DNA of 64,000 bases from positions 1,860,001 through 1,924,000 of the forward strand of contig OU342630.1 in the NCBI GenBank assembly GCA_910589415.1. The letters are read 5' to 3'. This document shows, one piece after another, positions 5,479 through 29,463 of this stretch (the first letter of the stretch is position 1; every line of letters starts with the position of its first letter). The translations under genes were made by a program, and so were the position numbers. The notes below the pieces were generated by a model. That model was not told the DNA's origin, did no database searches, and worked only from the letters and a program-made list of their open reading frames with translations. The DNA is from Malachius bipustulatus. Its lineage: Eukaryota > Arthropoda > Insecta > Coleoptera > Melyridae.

Positions 5479-5583
5479 TTCAGTAATATTTTTATCCTTT
5501 TACATTTAAATTATTCGGTTTGTTCATACTATACGACTATATCGCAGTCCGGCAACGATGTGCATCGTGCCGCTGCTAACACA

Positions 5584-6635
5584 CTACTGTCATTGTCTTC
5601 AATTGTTTTCTAAAAAACTGAAATGTCTTTTTAAAGTCATCGTCATTGAGAACATTGTTAATATATCCCAAAAGCTTTAAATTTTCATAGCATTTTCTTA
5701 GGGTTTGACTGTAAATAAAATCTAATCTGTTATTGTTTTGATTTGTATTTCCATTCTTTATTTTATTTTTTGGACAAGCAATATTAAAGCAGTAAGTAAA
5801 ATGATCATAAAATTTGTTAAATGCGATGTTTGCGTTATCTATTTCATTCAAGTTTAAAATCTTTTTATTAAATAAATATTTAAATTTATTAACGTTATCT
5901 ACTGATATACGCCTCTTGAAGGCAGAGCGCGGCAGGCTGGCAGCGATGCCAGACCTCCATTTTAGTACCTGGGCAGTATGATCAGATGCAGGAAAGTGAA
6001 TTATATCCCACTCAGTTATATCCCCCAAATTAGTAACCAAATAGTCTATTGCGGTTCTGGATTGTCCACAAATACGTGTAGGCTTGTTGATCAATGACAC
6101 CATCTGATACGAGCAAAACACATCATGCAAAATGAGATTCTCTCTATAATTCTCTCTCTTTCAATTTATCTACATTAAAGTCCCCACATAATATTACACT
6201 GCTGTATTTTTTGCATACAATATCCAACAGGCTGGTCAAGCTATTAATAAATATATCGAACTCACCTGATGGTGATCTATAAATCACGATAACACATACT
6301 GACTTGTAGAGCTCCACAGCAACTGCCTCAAAATTACATTCAGATATCAACCCTTCGCAAATACTAATGGGTCTCGTACTTGTATAGGTGTCACACCTTA
6401 CAAACACTGTTATGCCTCCCCTCGTATGCTGACTCCTGGAGAGATGATTTACTTGTTTATATTCTTTCAAACATGCGCACTCAGATCCCACAACACTCAG
6501 CCACGTTTCGGTCAAACAGAGAACATCAGGCCCAGTCTCCTCAGTGAGCAACTCCAGATAGTCCTTACCGAGGAATCCCTGTACATTAAGATGTACTAGT
6601 GTACACGCTTTTTTCTCGTCTGGTAGGTTGTGCAC
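5584..6635 (-). pseudogene. LINE ORF2, AP-endonuclease part (frameshifted)
   Basis: Two minus-strand frames, 6144-6635 and 5584-6130, together encode the apurinic/apyrimidinic-type endonuclease domain of the outer LINE, which nicks target DNA to prime reverse transcription. Motifs in order: LNVQGF, the magnesium-binding ETW block, GGITVFV, IYRSP, GDFNVD, then in the second frame DYLVTN and SDH, the catalytic histidine block. The break between frames is at about 6140-6160 inside a (CT)n tract, consistent with slippage. The 3' side is cut by the nested ORF1-only element; RT continues at 4029. No intact upstream ORF1 is present. Confidence 0.75.
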
Positions 6636-6660
6636 CCCAGCAGTAACCTTTTTCTCAGTC

Positions 6661-7214
6661 GACTCATGTTCCTCAGGATTCGCTCTTTGTTCCTGATCGA
6701 AAAAAATTGAAGCGCCTTACAACAACAACTTTTGGCCATATGTCCGGCTTATTCAATTTATCTAGTAAGAGTAGTAATCTAGTAAGAGTAGAACTGATAC
6801 TCTTTCGTCGCCCCCTAAGGCTTATCAGAGTCGAACGAGGACCCAGAGGTGACGCGAAGAATTGACTCGCGTCCCTGATCCAATTATTCTGAGTAAGAGT
6901 ATCATCCCCCATGGCTTCCTAACGCGCCGAAGTATTGCCTTGACGTGTTAGCCAGGCACATAAAAGGCCGACCTTCGATTGCGGGCGAGAATTGACCGTT
7001 ACGTTATCGAAGACAAGCCCAGTCAATTATTTAATAGGAAAACCCACTGAGTGATAATAGACAAGTGGTGTATTAGTATCTGTGAGTGAAGACAAGAGGA
7101 CAGCTGTGTTTATTATTTAGATTTAGAGGTTATAAGTTGTTTCTACTTGTGGTGTTAATCAATAAAGGAATTTGCAGACTTCTAGTGGTGGATTTATTAT
7201 TGTGAGACCCGTAA
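6661..7214 (+). repeat. Diverged Gypsy LTR fragment
   Basis: The end of this stretch (about 7090-7214) matches, with divergence, the end of the LTRs at 25249-25848: shared words include TAGAGGTTATAAGT, GGTGTTAA-CAATAAAGGAATTT and TTATTGTGAGAC-CGTAACA. The orientation here is plus, opposite to the Gypsy array. The upstream part (6661-7080) does not match those LTRs visibly and may belong to a related LTR subfamily; a TATA-like CATAAAAGGCC lies near 6958. Confidence 0.55.
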
Positions 7215-7556: not shown

Positions 7557-8920
7557 AACATCATACGATGTCAACAGTAAGAAAACTAGCCATGTTCCGC
7601 CAGTTGTCCCTCCAATGTGATCCTCCTCCGAACCGACGCTACCCTTTGATGAAGCAACTCTCGGAGGATATCCCTGATAAATCGCTTGACTCTTCGATGG
7701 GAGTGAATGTAACTTTTAATGCGAAAACTCGTCGAAAAGTCCTCGATCAGCCTCCACCTTTGAAAATCGCATGGGAAGAGAATCAGACGACGCATAAAGA
7801 TGCCGTCATTGTCACTAAATGCAAAGAAAACCAGCGAAAATCAATCAGATTCTCAAAGCATCCCTCAATAGAGATAGAAAATAACGATTTTTTTTTCGAA
7901 GAGGAAAGTACTGTCGAGTTTCAAGAAAAAACAAACATCAGCATTTATTTAGGTCATGGAAATACCTACGATTATGATAAAATTGGTAAATTCAATGAAA
8001 GACATGGTGCTGAAAATGTCCATGTTGTCAAACAAAAACTTTCACCTGCCATGATTGATAAATCGAAAAATATATTCGAGATACGTCGTAATTTAATAAA
8101 TGAAGATGACAAGTATTATGAGTCTTCCTACATACCAACCAAAACTTCTGTCAGAAATTTTGAAAAATCGAATTCCATTGTTGTCGTACCCCACAGTGAA
8201 GAGAAAAAACATCAAATTGTTACTTCTTTAGAAATGAAACTGACTGATGAAAGCTTAAAAGAAGCGAATAATTTGGAAAAACAAAATTCATGCCTCACTG
8301 TCTCGATTAGACCAACCACAGCAGCAGCTAAAAGAGAACGATTCCAAAAACGAACAAACTCTGCTTTCAACTCTACAGTCGTGGAAAAACGGTCACCCTT
8401 AGTGCGTTCATCGTCCGCTCCTAGTAAACCAGAACGGAAGCCGAAGTTTGTAGCAAGCAAAAGAAGAATTCGAACAGCAAAATCAAAAAGCAAAACAGCT
8501 AATCCACAGCAATGTTCTGGCAGCGAAAATCGAAACGAAGATGGAAGAGAACCTGAAGGAAAAGGTTTTTGTTTCACTGGCACTGAAGTTGAAACAATGA
8601 TTTCTCTGGTAAGCCCCGAGGAAAGTGAAAATGAGGAGTTGGTCGAACCTGAAAAACTAGTAGCAGCAACTAACATTGGAATAAATAGTAACAAAATAAT
8701 AAAAGAACCACCTGTGAATAATATTGAAGAAACAACACTTACTGCACAGAATAATAGTAGCTTGCGGAAAATTGTCAAACAGGGTAAGTTTTAGTTATTT
8801 CCAACCACATTATAGGTAAATTATCTATTGTTATGTACTCAGTTCTTAAATTTTATGTTTTCCCATCTAGAGAATGAGAATCACATTCCGAGTGAAAAGA
8901 CATCTTTTAAGTTTTTATAA
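7557..8920 (+). CDS. Hypothetical host protein, two exons
   Basis: The only stretch that looks like a host gene. ATG at 7568 follows a candidate acceptor at 7555-7556, so an upstream 5' UTR exon is likely. The open frame runs 405 codons to a donor at 8784 (G|GTAAGT); a candidate acceptor at 8869-8870 (TTTTCCCATCTAG) joins in the same phase to a short last exon (8871-8920) ending in TAA. Intron 8784-8870 is 87 bp. If unspliced, the frame stops at 8794. The protein is hydrophilic, rich in Lys, Glu and Ser, with a basic Ser/Arg/Lys tract at about residues 255-315 and no membrane segment or enzymatic motif that I recognise. It could be a cytoskeletal or nuclear disordered protein; I do not assign a family. 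Confidence 0.5.
8784..8870 (+). other. Candidate spliceosomal intron
   Basis: 87-bp GT-AG candidate with a consensus donor GTAAGT and a pyrimidine-rich acceptor. Splicing keeps the phase and adds about 16 codons before the stop. Without it the protein ends after three intron-encoded residues. Confidence 0.45.
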
Positions 8921-9985: not shown

Positions 9986-9991
9986 AATGTC
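9986..9991. repeat. 6-bp target-site duplication, left (AATGTC)
   Basis: AATGTC immediately precedes the AGTAG terminus of the palindromic element. The same six bases follow its right terminus at 23444-23449. Six-base duplications are the norm for Polinton/Maverick integration. Confidence 0.85.
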
Positions 9992-10022
9992 AGTAGAAAG
10001 GGCGCCACCTGGGCAGATTGGA

Positions 10023-10042
10023 TTTCCCTAGATCTAGGGAAA
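10023..10042. repeat. Perfect 20-bp palindrome near left terminus
   Basis: TTTCCCTAGATCTAGGGAAA, centred between 10032 and 10033, with another CTAGGGAAA half-site at about 10053. Its mirror image lies at 23393-23412, about 30 bp from the right end. It could be a protein-binding site or a hairpin involved in replication initiation or end recognition; this is inference. Confidence 0.6.
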
Positions 10043-10239
10043 AATGGCAGTCTAGGGAAATTTTACCTGAACTGACCTGGCCTCATGCAGAGCCGACGGG
10101 ACCTGACCGGACCACATGCAGAGCCGGCGGGGTCTGACCCGGCCTCACGATAGCAATAAATCTGTCAATTTAATAGCTTATTTATGTAAATTAGGGTCAT
10201 TAATCATATACGGAAAGCAATACTAATGAGTTCTTTTGT

Positions 10240-10745
10240 TATCGGGGGTCATTAATCACGCCCACCTGTCACTCCTTTGTTCGGCGGCCCTTTGTCGGTG
10301 TTCCTTTGTGTGAAATACAATAGAATTAATTATGTTGTTATTTATAACCCTCACGTGTCACTGAATATAAATTGTATAATTAAAAAAAACCTAATCCCTT
10401 AATGTCATTTTAATTGTTATTTATTATACCTATTATGACCCCACGGAGATAGCGGCGGTACCTATGAGGTGCACACCTGCACCATTAATCATATCCGGAA
10501 TGCAATAAACCTATCAAGTTAATTGTTATTTATGTACATACCTGCATCAGAAACAGATAAGATCTCAGAGTGTTCAACGGAAACCAAGCTTCGACACGTC
10601 AGAAAACAGCGCACCTGCACCCTGTCCTTTGTTCGGAAACACAATAGACTAATGAGTTCTTAGAAATCGGGGGTCATTAATCACGCCCACCTGTCACTCC
10701 TTTGTTCGGAGGCCCTTTGTCGGCGGTCCTATGTCTGGAACACAA
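10240..10745 (+). repeat. Duplicated non-coding module in arm
   Basis: Two direct copies of about 75 bp, at about 10245-10320 and 10674-10745. They share GGGGTCATTAATCACGCCCA, then CCTGTCACTCCTTTGTTCGG and GGCCCTTTGTCGG. Each is followed by an ACAATA word. Mirror copies lie at about 22690-22762 and 23115-23190 in the right arm. No coding function is seen. Confidence 0.6.
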
Positions 10746-11020
10746 TAAAGCTGCCGGTCATTGCTATGTGAACACAAAAGAGGAGTCAAGTTAATACATC
10801 CAATTCTACAAGCTTCGACACGTCTGAAAGGGACCACCAACATTGAAAACCGTTATTATGTTAATACATAGGTCCGTCGCACCCACCAGCATCGAAAACC
10901 GGTATTCACTACGAAGACCTACCTGCATACGTACCCACACACCTAGCCAACTACTACCTGCACCGAAAACCGGTATTATATGACTCACCACGGAGACAAC
11001 AAGCTTCGACACGTCTGAAA
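10586..11020 (+). repeat. Dispersed AAGCTTCGACACGTCTGAAA motifs
   Basis: The 20-bp motif occurs at 10810-10829 and 11001-11020, with one mismatch at about 10586-10605 and as a diverged copy near 15445-15464, downstream of the gene. Mirror copies are in the right arm. Recurring motifs of this type, spaced along an arm, resemble binding sites for a replication or packaging protein, but no such protein is encoded here. Confidence 0.55.
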
Positions 11021-11052
11021 TTGAATTATATGAAGAGTTGGGGCATAGGTCC

Positions 11053-11224
11053 ACTACTTGATGGACCAATCAGAATAAAGATAATCGAGGGGTGGGGGTA
11101 GAATATCGGGCGTATGATGTAGGGGAGGGGGTAACTACACTACTTGATGGACCAATCAGAATAAAGATAATCGAGGGGTGGGGGTAGAATATCAGGTGTA
11201 TGATGTAGGGGAGGGGGTAACTAC
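11053..11224 (+). promoter_or_regulatory. 86-bp tandem duplication upstream of PolB, with CCAAT
   Basis: Two adjacent 86-bp units (11053-11138 and 11139-11224), almost identical. Each contains GGACCAATCAG (CCAAT at 11066-11070 and 11152-11156) and a purine-rich GGGGTGGGGG tract. They end about 95 bp before the probable ATG at 11320. A TATA-like GAATATAAGT lies at about 11226. I interpret the region as a duplicated promoter module; the mirror copy serves the right-arm gene at 22211-22382. Confidence 0.5.
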
Positions 11225-11319
11225 TGAATATAAGTACCCAGATATGCAGCGTTACTACCATATAGTCTTCTGATTGAGTGCGCGAAGATACTTCTCAAGA
11301 GGTTGAAATTTGTGAAAAG

Positions 11320-14300
11320 ATGGCTTTCTCTATTGTCGACGAATACACCAAGACAAACCAACGATACAAGTTGAAACAGCACATAGTTGAGATTATACTG
11401 AACCCTCTGAAACGAGAGGTAGTCAATCCAGAGAAATGGCTCCAAGACGGGCTTCGGGGTGTGTTCAATTATATTGTGGAAAATGTGAACCCCGAGGACA
11501 AAGTAGGAATGACGTTCACAGCCGATGAGTTTAACGGGGATTTCCACATACCGTTCAAACAAGTGGTGAATTTACGGTTCGAGGAACTCTGGAAGAGACT
11601 CCACATATTATATCAGAGTAATAAGGCCGGGGTAGAGGGTGATACCTTCAAAATTATAGCAACCAGTTTCACCCCGTATAAGGGCTCAGGGCGAAACACG
11701 CAAGTATCGTTGACATATGCCGAGGATTGTGCCATGAGAAAGGGGATAGTTACAATCAATAATAAGGATAATTTGTGCTTGGTTCGTGCACTAGTGGTCG
11801 CTATGTCATACCTCCAGAACGTACCATATTTGAAGCAAGTGAGACAAAATATAGGAAAGAGACAGGACGAGGAAGTGCAGAAATTAATACAAGAGTCGGG
11901 GATTAACGTACCACAGGAAGGAGCGGGGTTTGAAGAACTACAATTATTTCAGCGATATCTGAAGGAATACAAGATTGTCGTGTATTCTTACGGAACAAAG
12001 GGAAGAGATGTGTTATTCGAAGGACCTGACACCCCACTCAGAATCAATCTTATCCATCATAACAACTACTATAACGTTATAACAAGCCTGACTTCCGCGT
12101 TTTGTTGTCGTTATTTTTGCCAAGACTGCAATGTTCCTTATGACCACAAGGAAAAACATAGATGCAGAGCCCAATGCCCCTGCTGCACTCGTAGGCCCCC
12201 GTGCCCAAAGATAGGTAATGAGATAAGCTGTGAAGACTGTAGTCGGCGATTCAGAGGACAACAATGCTACGATAATCACAAAGCAGCTGGAAGGAACGGT
12301 AAATCACTCTGCGACAACCTAAAAAGATGTAAAGAATGCCTAAAATCGATTAAAGCAGGGCGCCAACATTATTGCGGGGAATTTTTCTGTAAAGTTTGTA
12401 AAAAACACATGCCCTCGAACCATCTGTGCTACATACAAAAAGACACAGGGAAGCCCAAGCTTGATGATACGTTATTCGTATTCTATGATCTGGAAACCCG
12501 ACAAGATCAAGTCAACAACCTAGGAGAGAACGTTCATATTCCCGTGCTATGTGTCTTCCAGCAACGATGCAGCGAATGTTTTAGCTCCTACGGAGATAAC
12601 GAGTGTGAGAAATGCGGTGTTCGGCAACATATTCTGCAAGGCGAGAATGCTGTTGAGCTCTTTTTCAACTACCTATGGAGTCTGAAAATTTTTAAAAGTA
12701 TCGTTGTTGTGGCTCACAATGGAGGGTCATTCGATCATCAGTTTATATTTAGACACGTGCTGGAGAAAACAGATCTGAAGCCTGAAATAATTAAACGTGG
12801 AAGCAAATTACTTATGCTGACGGCAGGGAAGCTCAAATTTATCGATTCGATCAATTATTTCCCTATGAAACTATCAGCCCTACCGAAGGCATTCGATTTG
12901 AAAGAATTGAAGAAAGGTTACTTCCCGCACCTGTTCAATACCAAGGCTAACGAAGACTACGCCGGTGCAATACCCGACGCCAAATATTACTCTCCAGATA
13001 CCATGAAGCCGGCCGATCGCAGCGAGTTCATGGAGTGGTACGAACAGCAGAAAGGTAAATACTTCGACATGTCTCGGGAAATAATCAACTATTGCGTGTC
13101 GGATGTCGATATTCTCACGAATGCATGCCTCAAGTTCCACAAGATGATGATGGAGCAGGGAAACGTCTCGCCATTCACCGAGGCAATTACTATTCCAGGA
13201 GCCTGCAACAAACTATTCAGACGTGGTTTTCTGAAACCGAACACAATCGGCGTTTTACCTAAGAACGGGTTCAGGAATGCAGACACACAATCCAAGATCG
13301 CTCTACAGTGGTTAATTTACGAAGACGAGCAGAGGGGACTTGTAATACAACACGCCGGACGCCAGAGAGAGGTCAATATATGCGGTGTAAAAGTGGATGG
13401 CTTTTGTGATGGGCAGGTGTTTGAATTTCACGGCTGCTATTTCCATGGCTGCCTCACGTGCTACCCTATTAATCGAGAGAAACCTAGTCACGAAGACCCC
13501 ACCGATACTATGGAAGCAAGATATGAAAGGACAACGAAAAAGACAGAGAGACTAAGACAGAAAGGGATAGAAGTTGTGGAGATGTGGGAGCACGAGTTCA
13601 GGCAGTTGTTGGACAACGATAAAAATCTCAAAGACGGGTTGGATAATCATCCTATGCTTAGGAGTCTGCCACTGAACCCTCGTGACGCATTCTACGGTGG
13701 ACGGACTGGTTGCACCAAGAGTCACTATTGTGTTAAGGAGGGGGAGAAGATCAAATACGTCGACGTGTGCTCCCTTTATCCGTGGGTGTGCAAGTACGGC
13801 AAGTTTCCTGTGGGGCATCCAAAAGTTCTCTTAGGTGAGGAGCCCAAGGAGGGACTTATTAAATGCAAGATACTGCCACCTACAGACCTCTATCACCCCG
13901 TTCTTCCGATGAAGGCAAACGACAAGTTAATGTTCGCTCTCTGCCATACATGCACAATGGAGCTCAATCAGAGCGACTGCAACCATACAGACGATGAAAG
14001 AGCATTGACAGGTACGTGGGTCATAGATGAAGTCCGGAAGGCCGTGGAGTGTGGCTACAAGGTGCTTGAAGTGTATGAGGGATGGGAGTATGACACCACA
14101 CAGTATGATGGGAATTCAGGAGGCTTGTTTACTGAGTTTATGGACAAATTCATCAAAATAAAGCAACAGGCTTCCGGTTGGCCTGCGGAGTGCGTCACCG
14201 AAGAGCAGAAAAACGCATACATAGTGGCCTTCATGAAGAGTGAAGGTATACAGATGGAGCAGGGGGAAATTGTAAAGAACGCAGGACTCAGATCGCTGGC

Positions 14301-15143
14301 TAAATTAATCCTCAACAGCTTCTGGGGAAAACTAGGACAGCGCGAAAATCAACCTAAATGTGTGATCGTACGTCAACCTCAGGAGCTGTATGATTTGGTC
14401 AGTAATCCAGCTATAGATGTCACCCATATGTCGATTATTAACGACACAGTGCTCCTGGTTAGCTACACCCTTAAAGACGAAGCGGCAGATGTAATTCCAA
14501 GCGTTAATGTGGCGATTGCGGCATATGTGACAGCTCAGGCTCGACTCAAGTTGTACTCGTATCTGGAGAGTCTCGGCGAGAGAGTACTATATTACGACAC
14601 AGGTAATTTTCGATTTTTTTTTCAATCCCCGCTGTATTCTCTAATATGATATAAATTTAGCATATGAGTTTAATAGGATATTTCAGAACATGTTTCTTCT
14701 TTTTTGTTTCAGACTCCGTTATTTATGTCTCCAGAACAGGTGAATGGGATGTACCTACGGGGTCGTCGCTGGGTGAAATGACAGACGAACTGGAAGAATA
14801 TGGCCAGGGGGGATATATAGAAGAATTTACCTCTGCAGGCCCAAAGAATTACAGCTTTAGAGTTGTCTGTCCTACCACAGGGTATCGAAAAGAAATATGC
14901 AAGGTTAAGGGTTTTAACCTCAATTACCGCACTTCACAGCTAATCAACCCCCACAGCATGAAGAAAATGGTATGTGGCCCCAGCGAACCGATCCTGATCG
15001 AAAACGATCAGATACGGAGAACAAATACCCACGAAATAGTGACTAAGACCGAAAAGAAGGTTTATAGACACTGCTTGGAGAAGCGAAAATTTACCACTGA
15101 TCATGACTCAACGCCGTATGGTTATAAAAAACCTCGAAATTAA
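11320..15143 (+). CDS. POLB: Protein-primed-type DNA polymerase B (Polinton-like), left copy
   Basis: Family B DNA polymerase of the organellar/viral protein-primed type, with proofreading exonuclease. Exon 1 is 11320-14602, exon 2 is 14713-15143; total 1237 residues. ATG 11320 has a good context (AAAAGATGG). Domains: possible OTU-like block (DNLCLVRA, 150-157); Cys/His-rich zinc region (about 260-372); ExoI YDLE (D390, E392); ExoII N467/D472; ExoIII Y591/D595; an insertion resembling Vsr nuclease (692-760); motif A DVCSLYP (815-821); motif B with K995 and N999; motif C from 1092, split by the intron. All key residues are present and there is no premature stop. It faces an identical gene in the other arm. 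It probably replicates the element's DNA; the terminal protein is not identified. Confidence 0.88.
14603..14712 (+). other. Spliceosomal intron inside PolB motif C, left copy
   Basis: 110-bp intron with donor GTAATT at 14603 and a T-rich acceptor ending CAG at 14712, in phase 1. The first metal-binding aspartate of motif C lies before it and the codon of the second is completed only across the junction. Unspliced, the frame departs from motif C and stops at 14649. Confidence 0.85.
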
Positions 15144-16540
15144 TAATTTTTTTTGTATCCAGCCCCATATCCATACTACCATAATAAATGCAATGAGATT
15201 TATTTTAAGACAATTTGTAAAATATTAATGTACATATTACCTAATAAGGACAATTAAGTACTTGTATTATAAAGATAATGATTGGCCTTGTTTAATATTA
15301 ATGTAAAATATTCATATTTTAAATGTATGTGTTTCTTTTGATATAATTCTTACGCTTCTACTACTCTGAAAATAAAATTTTCAAATGATTTTTTTTATAT
15401 ATCAATCCATACTCATTCCTGAAGTAGTCGCATCCGAAGTCGACAAGTTTCAGCACGTCTGAAATTAAAGAGTTTCAGCACAAGTAGGTATCATCTTTTA
15501 TTTAATAATATTACAGCTAAGTCAATATGCTATTATTTATCTAAGATAACCGCCATGTAGTCTAAGACTGACAGCGGGATATCCAGCGAGGGAATTCCAA
15601 ACATGACAGGTCTATTACACCCACCATAATTAACGACCCCAGACGGTAGTGGCGACCACCCTGTGTATCGTTCGCCCGGAGCTCAGTCTGGAATACAATA
15701 GAGTTGCACACATGCATCCGGTCTTTTGTTCGACGATCCTTTGTTGGAATACAATAGGGTTAATTAAGCAGAGGTACGTCGACTTGTCGGCAGCCGCACA
15801 CCTGCACCCTATTGCATAACTGCTCAGCTCGGACCAAGTCAAATCTGCTTGTTATCAAGTCTCGGATATCGCGGGTCAACGCTTGTTCATCTCCTATCGC
15901 ATCTGACCATTGCCTTGCAGTTAGGCCTGACCAAATCTCATAGAGTTTGACTGTAGCGTCGCGCATCGGACTGGTCAACGTCTGATCGTCTCGTATCGAA
16001 CTGGTCAACGTATGATCATCTCTTATCGGATCTGGCTGACGGTGGGGACCTGATCAGGGTATCCGGGTTTTGTTCTGCCACATATACTTATCGATTTTGG
16101 TTGACTATCACATCTCGGTTCTGACGGGGTATCTATGGCTTTATGGCTTGGTCATGTACGTAGGACTAGGGTAGGTAGCGGAAACGTGGTAGCTGAAACT
16201 CGATGAATGGCATAGACTGGTAGCTGAAACATAAGTGTAGATAAAATGACAGTTATAAAATTCTGTAAGATAACAATTATTAAGACTGTATGATTAGGTG
16301 GCAGTTGGCCAAAAATGACAACATGGCACTCGATAAGTGTGCAGGTTTATACCCATGTTATCAAGATGCTAACAGGGAAACATTCGATTATTACCCTCAG
16401 CAACTTGAACAGCGTTGTCACATTGAGAAAACCGGTAGGCGATCACGGATTAACGGCTAGTCATATCTTATCGGATCTGGCCTACGGCGTCGAGTATTGC
16501 TTTCATGTGGCCGGGTCAGAGCCTGTCGGCTCTGCCTGAG
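15144..16540 (+). other. Non-coding DNA between PolB and centre, left arm
   Basis: No convincing gene. AATAAA-type polyadenylation signals follow PolB (for example 15371-15376). Small open frames at 15630-16008 (minus) and 16315-16539 (plus) have no recognisable domain and are present in both arms only because the arms are identical. The stretch 16480-16560 is homologous, in inverted orientation, to the subterminal block at 10075-10160. The mirror stretch is 16895-18291. Confidence 0.55.
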
Positions 16541-16544
16541 CCCC

Positions 16545-16690
16545 GGTCAGCTCGGATAAAATATTACAGAGTCCCGGTCAGCTAGATTAAACATTACAGA
16601 CCCCAGGTCAGCTCGGATAAAATATTACAGAGCCCCGGTCAGCTAGATTAAATATTACAGACCCCCGGTCAGCTCGGATAAAATAAGTGC
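16545..16690 (+). repeat. 30/31-bp tandem array next to centre
   Basis: Five units beginning GGTCAGCT at 16545, 16576, 16606, 16637 and 16667, alternating between two versions (CTCGGATAAAATATTACAGA and CTAGATTAAA-ATTACAGA). The mirror array is at about 16745-16890. They flank the axis of symmetry and so form iterated sites on both sides of it. Confidence 0.75.
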
Positions 16691-16744
16691 AGCTAGCGCT
16701 GCCCACTAATTGCCGCTAGCGGCCATTGGTGGGCAGCGCTAGCT
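16691..16744. repeat. Axis of the palindrome
   Basis: Symmetry centre between 16717 and 16718. AGCTAGCGCTGCCCACT on the left is mirrored on the right; the innermost 12 bp (CGCT|AGCG core) pair perfectly, with two mismatches (16707/16728 and 16711/16724). No spacer is present, so the DNA could extrude a very long cruciform. Confidence 0.8.
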
Positions 16745-18291
16745 GCACTTATTTTATCCGAGCTGACCGGGGGTCTGTAATATTTAATCTAGCTGACCGG
16801 GGCTCTGTAATATTTTATCCGAGCTGACCTGGGGTCTGTAATGTTTAATCTAGCTGACCGGGACTCTGTAATATTTTATCCGAGCTGACCGGGGCTCAGG
16901 CAGAGCCGACAGGCTCTGACCCGGCCACATGAAAGCAATACTCGACGCCGTAGGCCAGATCCGATAAGATATGACTAGCCGTTAATCCGTGATCGCCTAC
17001 CGGTTTTCTCAATGTGACAACGCTGTTCAAGTTGCTGAGGGTAATAATCGAATGTTTCCCTGTTAGCATCTTGATAACATGGGTATAAACCTGCACACTT
17101 ATCGAGTGCCATGTTGTCATTTTTGGCCAACTGCCACCTAATCATACAGTCTTAATAATTGTTATCTTACAGAATTTTATAACTGTCATTTTATCTACAC
17201 TTATGTTTCAGCTACCAGTCTATGCCATTCATCGAGTTTCAGCTACCACGTTTCCGCTACCTACCCTAGTCCTACGTACATGACCAAGCCATAAAGCCAT
17301 AGATACCCCGTCAGAACCGAGATGTGATAGTCAACCAAAATCGATAAGTATATGTGGCAGAACAAAACCCGGATACCCTGATCAGGTCCCCACCGTCAGC
17401 CAGATCCGATAAGAGATGATCATACGTTGACCAGTTCGATACGAGACGATCAGACGTTGACCAGTCCGATGCGCGACGCTACAGTCAAACTCTATGAGAT
17501 TTGGTCAGGCCTAACTGCAAGGCAATGGTCAGATGCGATAGGAGATGAACAAGCGTTGACCCGCGATATCCGAGACTTGATAACAAGCAGATTTGACTTG
17601 GTCCGAGCTGAGCAGTTATGCAATAGGGTGCAGGTGTGCGGCTGCCGACAAGTCGACGTACCTCTGCTTAATTAACCCTATTGTATTCCAACAAAGGATC
17701 GTCGAACAAAAGACCGGATGCATGTGTGCAACTCTATTGTATTCCAGACTGAGCTCCGGGCGAACGATACACAGGGTGGTCGCCACTACCGTCTGGGGTC
17801 GTTAATTATGGTGGGTGTAATAGACCTGTCATGTTTGGAATTCCCTCGCTGGATATCCCGCTGTCAGTCTTAGACTACATGGCGGTTATCTTAGATAAAT
17901 AATAGCATATTGACTTAGCTGTAATATTATTAAATAAAAGATGATACCTACTTGTGCTGAAACTCTTTAATTTCAGACGTGCTGAAACTTGTCGACTTCG
18001 GATGCGACTACTTCAGGAATGAGTATGGATTGATATATAAAAAAAATCATTTGAAAATTTTATTTTCAGAGTAGTAGAAGCGTAAGAATTATATCAAAAG
18101 AAACACATACATTTAAAATATGAATATTTTACATTAATATTAAACAAGGCCAATCATTATCTTTATAATACAAGTACTTAATTGTCCTTATTAGGTAATA
18201 TGTACATTAATATTTTACAAATTGTCTTAAAATAAATCTCATTGCATTTATTATGGTAGTATGGATATGGGGCTGGATACAAAAAAAATTA

Positions 18292-21200
18292 TTAATTTCG
18301 AGGTTTTTTATAACCATACGGCGTTGAGTCATGATCAGTGGTAAATTTTCGCTTCTCCAAGCAGTGTCTATAAACCTTCTTTTCGGTCTTAGTCACTATT
18401 TCGTGGGTATTTGTTCTCCGTATCTGATCGTTTTCGATCAGGATCGGTTCGCTGGGGCCACATACCATTTTCTTCATGCTGTGGGGGTTGATTAGCTGTG
18501 AAGTGCGGTAATTGAGGTTAAAACCCTTAACCTTGCATATTTCTTTTCGATACCCTGTGGTAGGACAGACAACTCTAAAGCTGTAATTCTTTGGGCCTGC
18601 AGAGGTAAATTCTTCTATATATCCCCCCTGGCCATATTCTTCCAGTTCGTCTGTCATTTCACCCAGCGACGACCCCGTAGGTACATCCCATTCACCTGTT
18701 CTGGAGACATAAATAACGGAGTCTGAAACAAAAAAGAAGAAACATGTTCTGAAATATCCTATTAAACTCATATGCTAAATTTATATCATATTAGAGAATA
18801 CAGCGGGGATTGAAAAAAAAATCGAAAATTACCTGTGTCGTAATATAGTACTCTCTCGCCGAGCCTCTCCAGATACGAGTACAACTTGAGTCGAGCCTGA
18901 GCTGTCACATATGCCGCAATCGCCACATTAACGCTTGGAATTACATCTGCCGCTTCGTCTTTAAGGGTGTAGCTAACCAGGAGCACTGTGTCGTTAATAA
19001 TCGACATATGGGTGACATCTATAGCTGGATTACTGACCAAATCATACAGCTCCTGAGGTTGACGTACGATCACACATTTAGGTTGATTTTCGCCCTGTCC
19101 TAGTTTTCCCCAGAAGCTGTTGAGGATTAATTTAGCCAGCGATCTGAGTCCTGCGTTCTTTACAATTTCCCCCTGCTCCATCTGTATACCTTCACTCTTC
19201 ATGAAGGCCACTATGTATGCGTTTTTCTGCTCTTCGGTGACGCACTCCGCAGGCCAACCGGAAGCCTGTTGCTTTATTTTGATGAATTTGTCCATAAACT
19301 CAGTAAACAAGCCTCCTGAATTCCCATCATACTGTGTGGTGTCATACTCCCATCCCTCATACACTTCAAGCACCTTGTAGCCACACTCCACGGCCTTCCG
19401 GACTTCATCTATGACCCACGTACCTGTCAATGCTCTTTCATCGTCTGTATGGTTGCAGTCGCTCTGATTGAGCTCCATTGTGCATGTATGGCAGAGAGCG
19501 AACATTAACTTGTCGTTTGCCTTCATCGGAAGAACGGGGTGATAGAGGTCTGTAGGTGGCAGTATCTTGCATTTAATAAGTCCCTCCTTGGGCTCCTCAC
19601 CTAAGAGAACTTTTGGGTGCCCCACAGGAAACTTGCCGTACTTGCACACCCACGGATAAAGGGAGCACACGTCGACGTATTTGATCTTCTCCCCCTCCTT
19701 AACACAATAGTGACTCTTGGTGCAACCAGTTCGTCCACCGTAGAATGCGTCACGAGGGTTCAGTGGCAGACTCCTAAGCATAGGATGATTATCCAACCCG
19801 TCTTTGAGATTTTTATCGTTGTCCAACAACTGCCTGAACTCGTGCTCCCACATCTCCACAACTTCTATCCCTTTCTGTCTTAGTCTCTCTGTCTTTTTCG
19901 TTGTCCTTTCATATCTTGCTTCCATAGTATCGGTGGGGTCTTCGTGACTAGGTTTCTCTCGATTAATAGGGTAGCACGTGAGGCAGCCATGGAAATAGCA
20001 GCCGTGAAATTCAAACACCTGCCCATCACAAAAGCCATCCACTTTTACACCGCATATATTGACCTCTCTCTGGCGTCCGGCGTGTTGTATTACAAGTCCC
20101 CTCTGCTCCTCTTCGTAAATTAACCACTGTAGAGCGATCTTGGATTGTGTGTCTGCATTCCTGAACCCGTTCTTAGGTAAAACGCCGATTGTGTTCGGTT
20201 TCAGAAAACCACGTCTGAATAGTTTGTTGCAGGCTCCTGGAATAGTAATTGCCTCGGTGAATGGCGAGACGTTTCCCTGCTCCATCATCATCTTGTGGAA
20301 CTTGAGGCATGCATTCGTGAGAATATCGACATCCGACACGCAATAGTTGATTATTTCCCGAGACATGTCGAAGTATTTACCTTTCTGCTGTTCGTACCAC
20401 TCCATGAACTCGCTGCGATCGGCCGGCTTCATGGTATCTGGAGAGTAATATTTGGCGTCGGGTATTGCACCGGCGTAGTCTTCGTTAGCCTTGGTATTGA
20501 ACAGGTGCGGGAAGTAACCTTTCTTCAATTCTTTCAAATCGAATGCCTTCGGTAGGGCTGATAGTTTCATAGGGAAATAATTGATCGAATCGATAAATTT
20601 GAGCTTCCCTGCCGTCAGCATAAGTAATTTGCTTCCACGTTTAATTATTTCAGGCTTCAGATCTGTTTTCTCCAGCACGTGTCTAAATATAAACTGATGA
20701 TCGAATGACCCTCCATTGTGAGCCACAACAACGATACTTTTAAAAATTTTCAGACTCCATAGGTAGTTGAAAAAGAGCTCAACAGCATTCTCGCCTTGCA
20801 GAATATGTTGCCGAACACCGCATTTCTCACACTCGTTATCTCCGTAGGAGCTAAAACATTCGCTGCATCGTTGCTGGAAGACACATAGCACGGGAATATG
20901 AACGTTCTCTCCTAGGTTGTTGACTTGATCTTGTCGGGTTTCCAGATCATAGAATACGAATAACGTATCATCAAGCTTGGGCTTCCCTGTGTCTTTTTGT
21001 ATGTAGCACAGATGGTTCGAGGGCATGTGTTTTTTACAAACTTTACAGAAAAATTCCCCGCAATAATGTTGGCGCCCTGCTTTAATCGATTTTAGGCATT
21101 CTTTACATCTTTTTAGGTTGTCGCAGAGTGATTTACCGTTCCTTCCAGCTGCTTTGTGATTATCGTAGCATTGTTGTCCTCTGAATCGCCGACTACAGTC

Positions 21201-22115
21201 TTCACAGCTTATCTCATTACCTATCTTTGGGCACGGGGGCCTACGAGTGCAGCAGGGGCATTGGGCTCTGCATCTATGTTTTTCCTTGTGGTCATAAGGA
21301 ACATTGCAGTCTTGGCAAAAATAACGACAACAAAACGCGGAAGTCAGGCTTGTTATAACGTTATAGTAGTTGTTATGATGGATAAGATTGATTCTGAGTG
21401 GGGTGTCAGGTCCTTCGAATAACACATCTCTTCCCTTTGTTCCGTAAGAATACACGACAATCTTGTATTCCTTCAGATATCGCTGAAATAATTGTAGTTC
21501 TTCAAACCCCGCTCCTTCCTGTGGTACGTTAATCCCCGACTCTTGTATTAATTTCTGCACTTCCTCGTCCTGTCTCTTTCCTATATTTTGTCTCACTTGC
21601 TTCAAATATGGTACGTTCTGGAGGTATGACATAGCGACCACTAGTGCACGAACCAAGCACAAATTATCCTTATTATTGATTGTAACTATCCCCTTTCTCA
21701 TGGCACAATCCTCGGCATATGTCAACGATACTTGCGTGTTTCGCCCTGAGCCCTTATACGGGGTGAAACTGGTTGCTATAATTTTGAAGGTATCACCCTC
21801 TACCCCGGCCTTATTACTCTGATATAATATGTGGAGTCTCTTCCAGAGTTCCTCGAACCGTAAATTCACCACTTGTTTGAACGGTATGTGGAAATCCCCG
21901 TTAAACTCATCGGCTGTGAACGTCATTCCTACTTTGTCCTCGGGGTTCACATTTTCCACAATATAATTGAACACACCCCGAAGCCCGTCTTGGAGCCATT
22001 TCTCTGGATTGACTACCTCTCGTTTCAGAGGGTTCAGTATAATCTCAACTATGTGCTGTTTCAACTTGTATCGTTGGTTTGTCTTGGTGTATTCGTCGAC
22101 AATAGAGAAAGCCAT
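18292..22115 (-). CDS. POLB: Protein-primed-type DNA polymerase B (Polinton-like), right copy
   Basis: Mirror copy of the left-arm gene: exon 1 is 22115-18833, exon 2 is 18722-18292, same 110-bp intron. It is intact and differs from the left copy at three residues that I see: D669E, R1008G (just after motif B) and S1084R (shortly before motif C). None is one of the invariant catalytic residues, although R1008G lies close to motif B. Both copies read toward the centre, so their 3' ends are about 3.1 kb apart. Which copy is expressed cannot be told; their promoters are practically identical. Confidence 0.88.
18723..18832 (-). other. Spliceosomal intron inside PolB motif C, right copy
   Basis: Mirror of the intron at 14603-14712, same splice signals and phase. 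Its presence in both arms places it before arm duplication or homogenisation. Confidence 0.85.
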
Positions 22116-23443
22116 CTTTTCACAAATTTCAACCTCTTGAGAAGTATCTTCGCGCACTCAATCAGAAGACTATATGGTAGTAACGCTGCATATCTGGGTA
22201 CTTATATTCAGTAGTTACCCCCTCCCCTACATCATACACCTGATATTCTACCCCCACCCCTCGATTATCTTTATTCTGATTGGTCCATCAAGTAGTGTAG
22301 TTACCCCCTCCCCTACATCATACGCCCGATATTCTACCCCCACCCCTCGATTATCTTTATTCTGATTGGTCCATCAAGTAGTGGACCTATGCCCCAACTC
22401 TTCATATAATTCAATTTCAGACGTGTCGAAGCTTGTTGTCTCCGTGGTGAGTCATATAATACCGGTTTTCGGTGCAGGTAGTAGTTGGCTAGGTGTGTGG
22501 GTAGGTATGCAGGTAGGTCTTCGTAGTGAATACCGGTTTTCGATGCTGGTGGGTGCGACGGACCTATGTATTAACATAATAACGGTTTTCAATGTTGGTG
22601 GTCCCTTTCAGACGTGTCGAAGCTTGTAGAATTGGATGTATTAACTTGACTCCTCTTTTGTGTTCACATAGCAATGACCGGCAGCTTTATTGTGTTCCAG
22701 ACATAGGACCGCCGACAAAGGGCCTCCGAACAAAGGAGTGACAGGTGGGCGTGATTAATGACCCCCGATTTCTAAGAACTCATTAGTCTATTGTGTTTCC
22801 GAACAAAGGACAGGGTGCAGGTGCGCTGTTTTCTGACGTGTCGAAGCTTGGTTTCCGTTGAACACTCTGAGATCTTATCTGTTTCTGATGCAGGTATGTA
22901 CATAAATAACAATTAACTTGATAGGTTTATTGCATTCCGGATATGATTAATGGTGCAGGTGTGCACCTCATAGGTACCGCCGCTATCTCCGTGGGGTCAT
23001 AATAGGTATAATAAATAACAATTAAGATGACATTAAGGGATTAGGTTTTTTTTAATTATACAATTTATATTCAGTGACACGTGAGGGTTATAAATAACAA
23101 CATAATTAATTCTATTGTATTTCACACAAAGGAACACCGACAAAGGGCCGCCGAACAAAGGAGTGACAGGTGGGCGTGATTAATGACCCCCGATAACAAA
23201 AGAACTCATTAGTATTGCTTTCCGTATATGATTAATGACCCTAATTTACATAAATAAGCTATTAAATTGACAGATTTATTGCTATCGTGAGGCCGGGTCA
23301 GACCCCGCCGGCTCTGCATGTGGTCCGGTCAGGTCCCGTCGGCTCTGCATGAGGCCAGGTCAGTTCAGGTAAAATTTCCCTAGACTGCCATTTTTCCCTA
23401 GATCTAGGGAAATCCAATCTGCCCAGGTGGCGCCCTTTCTACT

Positions 23444-23449
23444 AATGTC
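23444..23449. repeat. 6-bp target-site duplication, right (AATGTC)
   Basis: AATGTC directly after the right AGTAG-type terminus; identical to 9986-9991. Confidence 0.85.
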
Positions 23450-25244: not shown

Positions 25245-25248
25245 GTAT
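25245..25248. repeat. 4-bp target-site duplication of Gypsy array (GTAT)
   Basis: GTAT precedes the first LTR and also follows the last LTR at 36984-36987. No GTAT duplication separates the two units internally. Confidence 0.75.
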
Positions 25249-25848
25249 TGTTACGAGTCTCACAATAAATAAATCACCACCAAAGTCTGTAAATTCCTTT
25301 ATTGTTTAACACCACTAGTACTTATAACCTCTAATAATTATTCTAAATAATCAAAACACAAACAGCTGACTACACTACTACCCTACTTGCACTCGTCTAT
25401 TCTTTATATCCGCTATCTGTCACTACTGGCTCCCTTACTTCACACTTCACTTCTGCTCTGTCTATACTTCAGTCTTCACTGTTTCACGTTCAGGATACTA
25501 CTACTTTTCACGCAACCGCAGGCTGTCCTTATATAGTCCCCCGACGCATTAGTAGTCACGTTCTACTCCGTTCTAGCAGGTACATTCTCGAACGTCGCAC
25601 CGGCGCACCAGCCGTCGATTCATGGATTCTGGAAATGTCAGACTGTTCGGCGAGCCCGCTCCAGAAATCCATAGAACTAACGTATGTCTGTCGATGTGTC
25701 ACATGACATGTGACTGGAACTGTCGCGACATGTCATTGACTAACTCAGTATAAAAAAAGAATGTAAACAAACAAGCAAATTCGTGGACTAGAATGTTAAA
25801 GGTTAAAGAAGCAATTACTAGAATTTTTCCAGAGCGGTGTTCGTTATA
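25249..25848 (-). repeat. Gypsy LTR 1 (3' LTR in element orientation)
   Basis: 600 bp, plus-strand ends TGTTACGAG and CGTTATA. A TATA-like TATATAA is in the complement of about 25531-25537 (CTTATATAG), and an AATAAA signal in the complement of about 25297-25302. It agrees with LTR 2 wherever I compared them. Confidence 0.85.
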
Positions 25849-25866
25849 CTGCCCCCTTTCTATTTT
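25849..25866 (-). other. Polypurine tract, copy A
   Basis: On the minus strand the sequence just before the 3' LTR is AAAATAGAAAGGGGGCAG, a classic polypurine tract for plus-strand DNA priming. The same tract occurs next to LTR 2 at about 31416-31433. Confidence 0.75.
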
Positions 25867-25888
25867 CGAGCGTCCCGCTCGAACGGAC

Positions 25889-28800
25889 TTATTCGCTGTC
25901 TCCACAGTAGGGTGCCAGACGATTCAGGTGGACTACCTTCATCTTGCACTTGGGGGCTCCGCTCCGCTGTATCCTATACACCACGTCGTTTATCCTTTTA
26001 ATAATTGTGTAAGGCCCTTCCCAGGATGGCATAAACTTAGGCGACAAACCCTTCTTCCTAGTTGGATTATAAAACCACACTTTGTCTCCTTCTGTGAAGC
26101 CGCCGGAGTTTGCCTTCAAGTCGTACCTCGCCTTCATTCAGTCGCTGGCCAACTTGATCTTCCTCCTGACTAGGGAATGCACTTCTGCCATGGAGTTTCT
26201 TAATTCGTCGACATAGTTTCTGATCTCGGATGGTGGACTGCTTGGTGAACCGTACACCAAATCACAGGGTAGCCGAATCTCTTTGCCGAATACAACCTTG
26301 GCCGGTGTCTGCCCTGTAGTCTCATGGATGGCTGCCCTGTACGACATCAGCAACAAAGGCAGGTACTGGTCCCAGTCTCTCTGATTGTTGCTCACCACCT
26401 TCGACAGATGTTCCTCCATTGTTCGATTAAACCGTTCTACCATACCATCAGACTGTGGATGGAGAGGTGTAGTCCTTGTCTTGTTTATCCCGAGCAGTTT
26501 ACACATTTCTGCGAAAACTTGGGATTCAAAGTTTCGTCCTTGATCGGAATGCAACTCTAAAGGTACGCCAAATCTGCTAATCAAATTATCCACCAAGACT
26601 CTCGCAACTGTAGCAGCTTCTTGGTTCGGTATGGCGTATGCTTCAGGCCACTTGCTGAAATAATCCATGGCAACCAGTAAAAAGCGGTTACCGCTGTCAC
26701 TGATTGGAAAAGGACCTGCTACGTCTATGGCGATCCTCTCGAATGGGGCTCCGACGTTGTACTGCTTCATAGCGCCTGTTAGTCTTCTGCTTGGGCCCTT
26801 GCTTGCAGCACATTTCTCGCACTTACGGCACCAGGCTTCGACATCGTCCTTGCAGTTCACCCAGTAGAACCTCTCTCGAACTTTCGCTAGTGTTTTGTTC
26901 ACTCCGAAGTGAGCTCCTGCTGTACCTCCATGGATTACTTCGAGAATCTTCGGAACTTTACTCCTTGGAACCACCAGCTGCATGACGATCTTCTTTCCGT
27001 CGGCACTCTCCCAGGCTCTCTTCAGCAGACCATTTTCGATTTGCAGCGACTTCCATTGTGACCATAGAGCTTTATATTCTGGGCTACGTGGAGAAACCTC
27101 TGCCCACGTTGGTCTCGGTCCATTCTCTTCTTTACGTTTTAAAATGTCTCCGATGTCTTCGTCTTTTTCTTGCTCTTTCCTGCATGCTTCTATCGTCCAT
27201 CCTGTATCTGCATTGATCACGATCCTTCGAACGCACTCTTCCTTCTGGCTATCCTCAATCCGCTCACAATGTGAGCATTTCACGCATGGCCTCCTTGATA
27301 GTGCATCAGCGTTCTGGTGTAATCTGCCTGCACGATGTTTTATTTTGAAGTTGAACTGCTGTAGACGTTCTATCCACCTAGCAGTCTGACCCTCTACGTT
27401 CTTCATCTTCATCAGCCAGGTGAGCGCGCCGTGATCTGTTCTGATCAGGAATTCCTTCCCATGCAGATAATTTTTAAAATGCTCCACCGATTTGATTATC
27501 GCCAGTAATTCTTTCCTGGTGGTACAGTAGTTCCTCTCAGGCTTTGTCAAGGTCTTGCTGTAGTACTCGATGACTCGCTCTTCTCCCTCTTGGACTTGCG
27601 ATAAAACAGCACCTATCCCGATATTACTTGCGTCAGTATCAAGTACGTACTTTCCTTCTCTTTGAGGATATGACAGGATCGGACTAGAAATCAAAGCCTT
27701 TTTTAGTCTTCGGAAAGCGTCTTCACACTTGGCATCCCAGATGAAAGGTGTCTTCAATTCGGTGAGCTTATGGAGCGGAGCTGCTACATCTGCAAATTTC
27801 TTGACAAATCTTCGGTAGTATGTACAAAGACCCAGGAAACTTCGGACTTCGTGTCTGTCCTTAGGAGTCGGCCAATCACGAATCGATGCTACTTTGCTGT
27901 CGCTGGTCTGGATTCCTTCAGAAGTTACGGTATGTCCCAATAACTCAACCTTCTTCTTAAATAGCGAACATTTTTCTGGATTCAGCTTCAGGTTGGCAGT
28001 TCTGAATCGATCGAAAATTTCCTGAAGGTTGTCGATGTGATTTTGGAAAGTGGAACCCATAACCATGACATCGTCCAGGTATACTAGGCATGTTTTCCAG
28101 GTCAGCCCTCGGAGTACCATCTCCATTAGTCTTTCAAAGGTGGCTGGCGCGTTGCAAAGACCAAATGGCATAACCTTGAAATTGTACAGACCCGTGCCAG
28201 TAGAAAACGCAGTTTTCTCTTTGTCGTTTGGGTGCATGCCAACCTGCCAGTAACCGCTCTTCAGGTCCAAGGTTGAGAACCAGGTTGAGCCAGACAAGGT
28301 ACATAAAATGTCGTCGATTCTTGGTAGCGGGTAGCTGTCCTTCTTCGTAACATCGTTCAACTTCCTATAGTCGACGCAAAACCTTGTTGTTCCATCCTTC
28401 TTGGTTACTAACACGACTGGCGATGACCACGGGCTGTTGGATTCCTCAATCACTCCGTCTTTCAGCATCTGGTCCAGCATGGTTGATACCTCTTCTTGTT
28501 TCGCAATCGGCAGTCTTCTTGGGGCTTGTCTTATTGGTTGGGTGTCGCCTGTATTTATTCGGTGTTGCACAATGTCCGTTCTGCCTAATTTCATGTTCCC
28601 TGTTGCGAAAACGTCTTGGTTCCTCTTCAAAAATTCTTTCGCCAACTTTGTCTCGTCTTTTGACAGTTCTTCGAAGTCAACTTCCGGCGGGACAATCTTC
28701 ATCTTCCTTGTATCTGCCTTCTCCTTGCCCTCCATCTTCTCGCAACAGCTGATCTTCTTGACTGGTACGCAAATTCCAAGTACATCACCTTCCTTGATCC

Positions 28801-29452: not shown

Positions 29453-29463
29453 ACTGGCTGAAG

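What the first reader, a model, noticed from the sequence alone, without database searches (positions are those of the whole stretch)
9986..23449. A whole transposable element that is one 13.4-kb palindrome with a PolB gene in each arm
Seen: two 6,726-bp arms without spacer, constant coordinate sum 33,435, only scattered substitutions, AGTAG ends, 6-bp direct repeat AATGTC outside, one intact PolB gene per arm. Known: Polintons have short to moderate inverted repeats, 6-bp duplications, and encode integrase, protease, ATPase and capsid proteins as well as PolB. Here the repeat is the whole element and PolB is alone. Either strand, alone, could fold to a 6.7-kb hairpin and encode PolB. I infer a PolB-only relative or satellite of Polintons, possibly using fold-back replication and an integrase in trans.
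Basis: partly seen in the sequence, partly recalled or inferred. Interest (0 to 1): 0.93.

Follow-up and report, generated by a model that had tools for sequence, protein, structure and literature searches.

The report
Mirror-image PolB-only Polinton satellite transposon
A beetle-like genome holds many mobile elements that are mirror images of themselves; those of the kind in this window carry one DNA-polymerase gene in each half and appear to be stripped-down satellites of a full virus-like Polinton transposon in the same genome.

Summary
The window holds a 13,452-bp element (9992-23443): two 6,726-bp arms, 9 mismatches, no indels, target duplication AATGTC, and an intact 1,237-aa Polinton-type PolB (one intron) per arm. 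In the same beetle-like genome 15 of 25 PolB loci are plus/minus PolB pairs; the ten further pairs fetched are all palindromes, eight with their own perfect 6-bp duplication. Arms within a copy differ at 0-6 of 3,282 PolB sites, copies by up to 4%. 39 of 40 scored centre matches are palindromic over the query, some in elements without PolB. PolB is under purifying selection (median dN/dS 0.18). A non-palindromic Polinton with integrase, ATPase, protease-like and capsid genes shares the PolB-side end and PolB, is mosaic with the palindromes, and has a different far end. So these look like PolB-only mirror-image Polinton satellites, presumably integrated in trans. The axis carries a hairpin whose asymmetry is largely conserved while arms stay identical, suggesting fold-back copying; but three arm differences shared by two insertions show that both arms can pass through transposition. 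Fold-back and trans-integration are inferred. My literature searches (capped listings, open-licence papers) showed no counterpart.

The parts
9986..9991 (.). left 6-bp target-site duplication AATGTC
   Evidence: identical to 23444-23449
23444..23449 (.). right 6-bp target-site duplication AATGTC
9992..16717 (+). arm a (6,726 bp), AGTAGAAAGG outer end
16718..23443 (-). arm b, mirror of arm a, 9 mismatches, no indels
11320..14602 (+). PolB exon 1, arm a (start chosen by alignment with relatives; exonuclease motifs, polymerase motifs A and B present; motif names recalled)
14603..14712 (+). PolB intron, arm a (GT-AG, 110 bp, interrupts YYDTDS)
   Evidence: relative P0001 leaves the frame at the same place
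14713..15143 (+). PolB exon 2, arm a
18833..22115 (-). PolB exon 1, arm b
18723..18832 (-). PolB intron, arm b
18292..18722 (-). PolB exon 2, arm b
10060..10158 (+). outer subterminal ~30-bp repeats (arm 69-167), arm a; mirror 23277-23375
15939..16717 (+). centre module, arm a (arm 5948-6726): begins where homology to the Polinton ends; most of it also found in the class 2 and class 3 loci read
16718..17496 (-). centre module, arm b
16495..16685 (+). axis-side repeats, part of them inverted and about 81% like the outer subterminal repeats; mirror 16750-16940
16668..16767 (.). axis hairpin tip; nearly symmetric in this copy (2 mismatched pairs), more asymmetric in most other copies compared

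Best explanation
The element belongs to a recently active family of Polinton-derived satellites whose whole sequence is a palindrome: two copies of the PolB-side end of a Polinton joined tail to tail through a centre module with a hairpin tip. Proposed cycle: Polinton integrase, supplied in trans, recognises the AGTAG ends, which are both of the PolB-side type, and inserts the element with a 6-bp duplication. The element's own PolB, or one from a sister copy, copies it from its ends. A displaced strand folds into a 6.7-kb hairpin with the imperfect tip. Copying or repair in that folded form keeps the arms identical, while full-length copying lets arm differences pass on at times. Shown by sequence: the palindrome, the family, the different duplications, intact PolB under purifying selection, near-identity of arms within copies, the tip, and a Polinton with the same PolB end and an integrase ORF, mosaic with the palindromes. 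Inferred: protein priming, fold-back copying, integrase in trans.
For: Palindrome and duplication. Ten further loci, chosen because one search showed a PolB pair there, are palindromes with 99.6-99.9% identity of arms in the longest aligned block. 9 of 11 PolB palindromes, window included, have a perfect 6-bp duplication, all different. 39 of 40 scored centre matches are full-length on both strands at the same place. Arms differ at 0-6 of 3,282 sites, copies by 0.03-4.05%. dN/dS median 0.18. A Polinton with shared PolB end, integrase ORF, ATPase, double-jelly-roll capsid protein and duplication CTCCTC. PolB arms mosaic between Polinton and palindromes. Asymmetric tip shared in 33 of 36 pairs of nine copies, or 25 of 28 without the 8 pairs used to orient; two copies hold nearly symmetric tips. 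The number of terminal AGT triplets varies between copies; from memory this fits jump-back initiation of protein-primed polymerases.
Against: Two insertions (window and C6:20.61) share three arm-to-arm differences in the same arrangement, so arms are not remade from one arm at every transposition. No episomal DNA, reads or expression data. 3 of 36 tip pairs (all with C14:18.44) are closer in the opposite orientation, and flip/flop cannot be told from insertion orientation. C13:21.39 has no target duplication and C1:20.04 matches in 5 of 6 bases. The integrase is not in the element; the integrase ORF of the Polinton read is short (225 aa) and that copy carries an insert, so it need not be the helper. 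The centre module is not explained by the Polinton's far end. The genome search for the centre module as a non-palindrome did not complete.
Confidence: 0.64

Rival explanations
1. A PolB-only Polinton derivative with extremely long inverted repeats that is copied and integrated as ordinary double-stranded linear DNA; arms are kept alike only by gene conversion, and no folded single strand is involved.
For: Three arm differences passed through a transposition together. Mosaic PolB arms show recombination between elements. Gene conversion between the arms of large palindromes is known elsewhere (recalled).
Against: Arms are near-identical although copies differ by up to 4%, so conversion would have to be frequent. 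A largely conserved asymmetric tip, with symmetrised tips in the window and in C14:18.44 (9-nt loop, longer stem), looks like copying around a hairpin.
Confidence: 0.26
2. Each palindrome arose at its own site after insertion of an ordinary Polinton, by chromosomal inverted duplication of the PolB end.
For: Such a duplication would keep the original target duplication; PolB of the full Polinton nests among palindromes.
Against: The centre module is shared by the classes read, and the Polinton-to-module junction near arm 5948 is the same in class 1 and in the class 3 arm read, so a founding event was inherited. The palindromes have two PolB-side ends, whereas the two non-palindromic elements examined have two different ends. 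Window and C6 share arm differences across separate insertions.
Confidence: 0.05
3. Assembly or amplification artefact (fold-back reads joined into palindromes).
For: Artificial palindromes are known in long reads after amplification (PMC6218980, title and start of abstract in the listing). Runs of N of gap-like size lie in L032 and L048.
Against: Palindromes stop at element ends with different flanks; 18 of 20 loci with both ends read have a matching 6-bp duplication, three of them only after allowing one extra AGT triplet, and two of the 20 are known only as inverted end pairs. Arms carry a few substitutions, three of them shared by two loci.
Confidence: 0.02

Closest known systems
Polinton/Maverick transposons (polintoviruses, adintoviruses)
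   Same: PolB family (Pfam DNA_pol_B_2), PolB beside one end and pointing inward, AGT-type ends, 6-bp target duplications, size near 13 kb. A Polinton in this genome shares end and PolB with the window element at 92-98% by segment.
   Different: No integrase, ATPase, protease or capsid gene found. The inverted repeat is the whole element (6.7-kb arms), against 46-1,447 bp, mean 402, in intact vertebrate Mavericks (PMC8097293, passages). Two PolB-side ends instead of two different ends.
Bidnaviridae
   Same: PolB and terminal repeats thought to come from Polintons (PMC4061559, passages), on linear segments of about 6 kb (size recalled).
   Different: No second gene family found in the arm ORFs scanned; bidnavirus terminal repeats do not form parvovirus-type hairpins; here the unit is a palindromic dimer inserted in the genome.
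Parvovirus and poxvirus hairpin telomeres and their dimer junctions
   Same: Works like: an imperfect hairpin at the axis of a palindromic dimer, asymmetry kept while arms are identical (comparison recalled).
   Different: No Rep/NS1 or resolvase seen among the ORFs scanned; sequence relation not tested; not a membership claim.
Adenovirus 'symmetric' variants with a duplicated left end
   Same: Works like: a protein-primed linear genome in which one end is duplicated in inverted orientation by fold-back (recalled; the one search on it returned no paper).
   Different: Those are variants of a virus (recalled); here a dispersed, selected, chromosomal family.
Foldback (FB) elements of flies
   Same: Long inverted repeats built partly of subterminal tandem repeats (recalled).
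   Different: FB elements are not palindromic throughout and do not carry PolB (recalled; not tested).

Membership tests
Polinton/Maverick | family-B DNA polymerase of Polinton type | tested here: met
   Pfam E 4.7e-43 for exon 1 and catalytic motifs, 1,237 aa; PolB exon 1 2.0% from that of a Polinton with capsid genes
Polinton/Maverick | retrovirus-like (rve) integrase gene | tested here: not met
   no rve in the three arm ORFs scanned; tblastn with the Polinton integrase finds none in the window arm or the 20 fetched halves
Polinton/Maverick | packaging ATPase, protease, major and minor capsid genes | tested here: not met
   8 Polinton proteins, no tblastn hit at E 1e-4 in the window arm, 20 halves, L044, L047, L049, L055 or L057
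Polinton/Maverick | 6-bp target-site duplication | tested here: met
   9 of 11 PolB palindromes perfect; 9 of 9 class-3-like loci, three only after allowing one extra AGT triplet
Polinton/Maverick | AG/AGT-type end motif | tested here: met
   AGTAGA ends in the copies whose ends were read; (AGT)2//(ACT)2 among the motifs reported for Mavericks
Polinton/Maverick | short to moderate terminal inverted repeats around a unique interior | tested here: not met
   6,726-bp arms, no unique interior; reported range 46-1,447 bp in intact vertebrate Mavericks
Polinton/Maverick | protein-primed replication | not testable with these tools
   variable AGT triplet number at ends is suggestive only
Bidnaviridae | parvovirus-type helicase and capsid genes with PolB | tested here: not met
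   Pfam finds only the polymerase family among the three arm ORFs scanned
Hairpin-telomere replicon (works like) | imperfect palindromic tip with conserved asymmetry | tested here: met
   33 of 36 pairs of nine copies closer in a common orientation, 25 of 28 without the pairs used to orient; the window's own tip is nearly symmetric
Hairpin-telomere replicon (works like) | flip and flop forms relative to arm markers | tested here: inconclusive
   both orientations occur, but insertion orientation of a palindrome cannot be separated from them

The most novel reading that the evidence does not exclude
The palindromes are an independent class of self-copying mobile DNA that lives as a hairpin genome: each single strand carries a whole PolB unit twice, folds on itself around a maintained imperfect telomere-like tip, and is copied by its own PolB. 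The shared centre module with that tip spreads between elements and turns other cargo (PolB-less classes 2 and 3) into palindromic mobile elements.
Probability: 0.35. Interest if true: 0.95.

Novelty: new variant of a known kind. Interest (0 to 1): 0.88.

Why it matters
Long perfect palindromes are expected to be unstable (recalled), yet here at least eleven PolB palindromes, mostly 12.5-13.5 kb, and probably dozens of related ones without PolB sit in one genome. It gives a natural case of a linear, virus-like transposon throwing off mirror-image satellites, much as viruses throw off defective genomes, and of a satellite that keeps a polymerase but not an integrase. It makes an open question testable: how Polintons replicate, and whether a single-stranded or hairpin intermediate exists. 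It also offers a set of palindromes for studying arm homogenisation.

Tried and rejected
Assembly artefact: rejected, because many loci end at 6-bp duplications and two loci share arm differences. One-off inverted duplication at this site: rejected by the family. Centre module as the far end of the Polinton: no similarity found beyond 11-base matches with the second element's far end; it resembles the PolB-side subterminal repeats instead. Arms remade at every transposition: contradicted by three arm differences shared by the window and C6. Monophyly of palindromes: the full Polinton's PolB nests among them, so recombination or repeated exchange must be assumed. Relatives in IMG/VR: none with the protein, one weak locus with the alignment, L001, not examined. 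Relatives in prokaryote assemblies: 14 contaminant-like contigs; five look Polinton-like by eye from ORFs (L002, L004, L005, L012, L014), Pfam was run only on L004; no inverted repeat of 40 bp or more in the 8 contigs tested. PDB by sequence, exon 1 only: none. Class 2 ORFs: three scanned, no Pfam match; the 144-aa one has no homologue at E 0.001. Literature: 9 searches showed no palindromic Polinton, but listings are capped (20 of 44 papers, 12 of 16, 10 of 185); judged from titles and abstract starts; passages were read only in PMC6431247, PMC4061559 and PMC8097293.

Selection and rows dropped: one search scored 41 matches of 331 candidates, at 25 loci by my count; 15 are plus/minus pairs, window included. 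The ten pairs fetched were chosen because they are pairs, so their being palindromes was expected; the other four pairs were not fetched. Of ten single-PolB loci, C16:10.17 and C4:1.93 were examined at several points (non-palindromic), C16:27.68 at its outer end and axis (second arm present at the axis), seven not at all. The query spans the axis, so its ranking favours palindromic places, and 48 of 88 candidates were not scored. For the tip comparison nine of eleven copies were used; C6:20.61 and C13:21.39 were left out because no complete core was found in the script.
Full report
What is there. The window element spans 9992-23443 (13,452 bp) between direct repeats AATGTC. Its arms of 6,726 bp are complementary with 9 mismatched pairs and no gap. 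Each arm holds one PolB gene: start at 11320, a 110-bp intron at 14603-14712 that splits the catalytic YYDTDS motif, end at 15143; 1,237 aa in both arms, with exonuclease motifs, motif A and motif B (motif names recalled). The closest of 87 relatives found, P0001 (63%), leaves the frame at the same intron place. A gene beside the element at 7562-8791 has 28 relatives; the 11 that carry an organism name are all beetles, so the host is most likely a beetle.

It is a family. In the window's own genome (544 Mb, 52 contigs) the PolB search scored 41 matches of 331 candidates, at 25 loci by my count. Fifteen loci, window included, are plus/minus PolB pairs, some truncated. Ten of the other pairs were fetched as separate halves; they were picked because they are pairs. 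In all ten the left half matches the reverse complement of the right half at 99.6-99.9% in the longest block; C1:20.04 carries a 2.8-kb insert in its right arm, C1:10.08 a smaller gap between its arms, and C13:21.39 lacks several hundred bases on one side of the axis. Nine of the eleven copies, window included, have a perfect 6-bp duplication, all different: AATGTC, CATAGG, TACAAC, GACGAA, TGCTTC, TTCATT, CGGGAG, AATTAC, AAGGTT. C1:20.04 matches in 5 of 6 bases (AATGTA/AAGGTA), and C13:21.39 has none. The two ends of C3:44.48 differ at a few bases.

More classes. A search with 196 bp around the axis scored 40 of 88 candidates; 39 of the 40 places match the whole query on both strands at the same coordinates, the other (C6:20.61, a PolB copy) matches over about half of it. 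The query spans the axis, so the ranking favours palindromes. Class 2 (three loci read at the axis, L044-L046) is palindromic over about 4 kb there at 99.2-99.5%, shares about 1 kb per arm with the window element (88-96% in the main blocks), and has no PolB hit. Its left outer parts, read at two loci, start with AGTAGAATAGG, which would make arms near 7.0 kb, and are 99.2-99.7% alike between two chromosomes in the two long blocks. No right end of class 2 was seen: the one right side fetched runs into a run of N, so its full palindromy is not shown. Class 3, from one arm read, has the class-1 end (98% over 1,233 bp), a 151-bp PolB remnant, a 155-aa ORF and the same centre module. A search with the first 120 bp of the element scored 40 of 171 candidates: 18 inverted pairs, 16 of them 12.5-13.5 kb apart and two 16.3 and 18.4 kb, and 4 single ends. 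Nine of these pairs without a PolB match were checked for duplications: six match directly (CGAGTC, TTGGTA, CATTCG, TACGTG, TCGGTA, CAATTA) and three (CAGACG, ATGAAC, TAGGTA) match if one extra AGT triplet at an end belongs to the element. Seven of the nine also have a centre match; C1:9.74 and C1:52.62 do not, and C1:9.74 has two somewhat different ends.

Arms within and between copies. Over 3,282 bp of PolB exon 1, arms of one copy differ at 0, 1, 1, 1, 1, 2, 2, 3, 4, 5 and 6 sites in the eleven copies, while copies differ by 0.03-4.05%. In the tree the arms of seven copies pair with each other; the four copies of the two very young pairs (window with C6, C10 with C3:49.83) mix. Non-synonymous change is low: median dN/dS 0.18, range 0.134-0.279, in the 52 of 55 pairs with dS above 0.02, with no stop in exon 1 of the 22 arms used. 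Some other PolB matches in the genome do hold stops. The window and C6 share three arm-to-arm differences (arm 418, 940, 3713) in the same left-right arrangement, although they sit at different sites with different duplications; the other very young pair, C10 and C3:49.83, shares none. So both arms can travel together, and homogenisation is frequent but not obligatory.

The axis. The centre is a hairpin-forming core inside near-perfect arms. In most copies it is imperfect, with one-sided bulges that recur. After orienting nine cores to one of them, 33 of 36 pairs are closer in the common orientation than in the opposite one; 8 of these pairs were used to orient, which leaves 25 of 28, and the 3 exceptions all involve C14:18.44. 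The window copy (2 mismatched pairs) and C14 (9-nt loop in a longer stem) look symmetrised. Single-strand folding of these cores is trivial for palindromes and is not used as evidence. Part of the axis-side repeats resembles the outer subterminal repeats in inverted orientation (81% over 59 bp), so each arm has related repeats at both of its ends.

The parent. The single-PolB locus C16:10.17 is a non-palindromic Polinton, read in separate overlapping pieces: PolB-side end, PolB, then integrase (rve, E 4.3e-12, ORF only 225 aa), A32-type ATPase, a phospholipase-A2-like protein and a double-jelly-roll capsid protein (E 7.5e-73), a protein without Pfam match that resembles the protease of another Polinton contig by tblastn (E 2e-7), an insert whose ORFs look like a retroelement (by eye), and a far end starting AGTAGAAGTG, with duplication CTCCTC. 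Its homology with the palindrome arm runs to arm position 5948, just past PolB. None of its 8 other proteins hits the palindromic loci tested at E 1e-4. A second non-palindromic PolB element, C4:1.93, also has two different ends and duplication TCCAGT if one extra AGT is counted as element; its gene content was not worked out. Contaminant Polinton contigs also carry PolB pointing inward from near a contig end, but their gene order differs (PolB is followed by the ATPase in L002, L004, L005, L012 and L014). The Polinton's PolB nests among the palindromes, 0.37% from C1:10.08, and identity along the arm is patchy: C1:69.52 is 99.3-99.9% to the Polinton in the end and first half of PolB but 89% after PolB, while C1:13.58 is 87-95% there, then 99.3% in the second half and 97% after PolB. 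Helper-type and satellite-type elements therefore exchange arms, which suggests that they replicate in the same cells.

Mechanism. Shown: structure, family, integration signature, selection, homogenised arms, the largely conserved tip, a related Polinton. Inferred: the palindrome has two PolB-side ends, so any factor that needs only that end type can start from both. Polinton integrase in trans is the simplest source of the 6-bp duplications; a search with another Polinton's integrase scored 114 matches of 2,308 candidates in this genome, some of which, such as those inside ORFs above 1,000 aa, may belong to other integrase families. Variable AGT triplet number at the ends fits jump-back starts known from protein-primed systems (recalled). 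Fold-back at the tip would keep arms alike and leave the tip asymmetric; full-length copying would explain the shared arm differences.

Known or new. Polintons have terminal repeats of hundreds of bases (46-1,447 in intact vertebrate Mavericks, PMC8097293, passages); bidnaviruses are thought to have taken PolB and termini from Polintons but lack parvovirus-type terminal hairpins (PMC4061559, passages). No paper on a palindromic Polinton appeared in the listings, which are capped and cover open-licence PubMed Central papers only. I therefore call it a new variant of a known kind: Polinton-derived, but failing defining features (integrase and capsid genes, moderate inverted repeats).

Noticed in passing
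G000:C3:20108332 to about 20115350 (L047, L044), also L045, L046, L049: Class 2 elements: same centre module, palindromic about the axis, different outer arms with AGTAGAATAGG left ends, no PolB hit, outer arms 99% alike between two chromosomes; ORFs of 128, 144 and 111 aa without Pfam match. Right ends not seen.
   Followed up: partly
G000:C4:2261997-2274980 (L057, L058): Class 3 element with class-1 ends, a PolB remnant and a 155-aa ORF without Pfam match, duplication CGAGTC; one arm read.
   Followed up: partly
G000:C16:10172401-10190200 (L050, L023, L051, L056, L063): Polinton of the same lineage with two different ends, a short integrase ORF and a retroelement-like insert near its far end.
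   Followed up: yes
L032/L033 and L055 (C13:21.39, C16:27.68): Two copies share a one-sided deletion of several hundred bases beside the axis, in opposite orientation on the chromosome; C13:21.39 also lacks a target duplication.
   Followed up: partly
window 25248-37000: Two Gypsy-like retrotransposons in tandem that seem to share a terminal repeat (three identical 300-bp blocks 5,567 bp apart; type judged by eye from ORFs).
   Followed up: no
window 47200-57200: Nested, partly inverted copies of an element whose ORFs look like a Penelope-type reverse transcriptase with a GIY-YIG-like end (judged by eye from the translation).
   Followed up: no
window 2176-6716: ORFs on the minus strand that look like a non-LTR retrotransposon (reverse transcriptase and endonuclease pieces, by eye).
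   Followed up: no
ends of several copies (L059-L060, L065-L066, L069-L070, L064): Number of AGT triplets at the very end varies by one between copies, and even between the two ends of one copy.
   Followed up: partly
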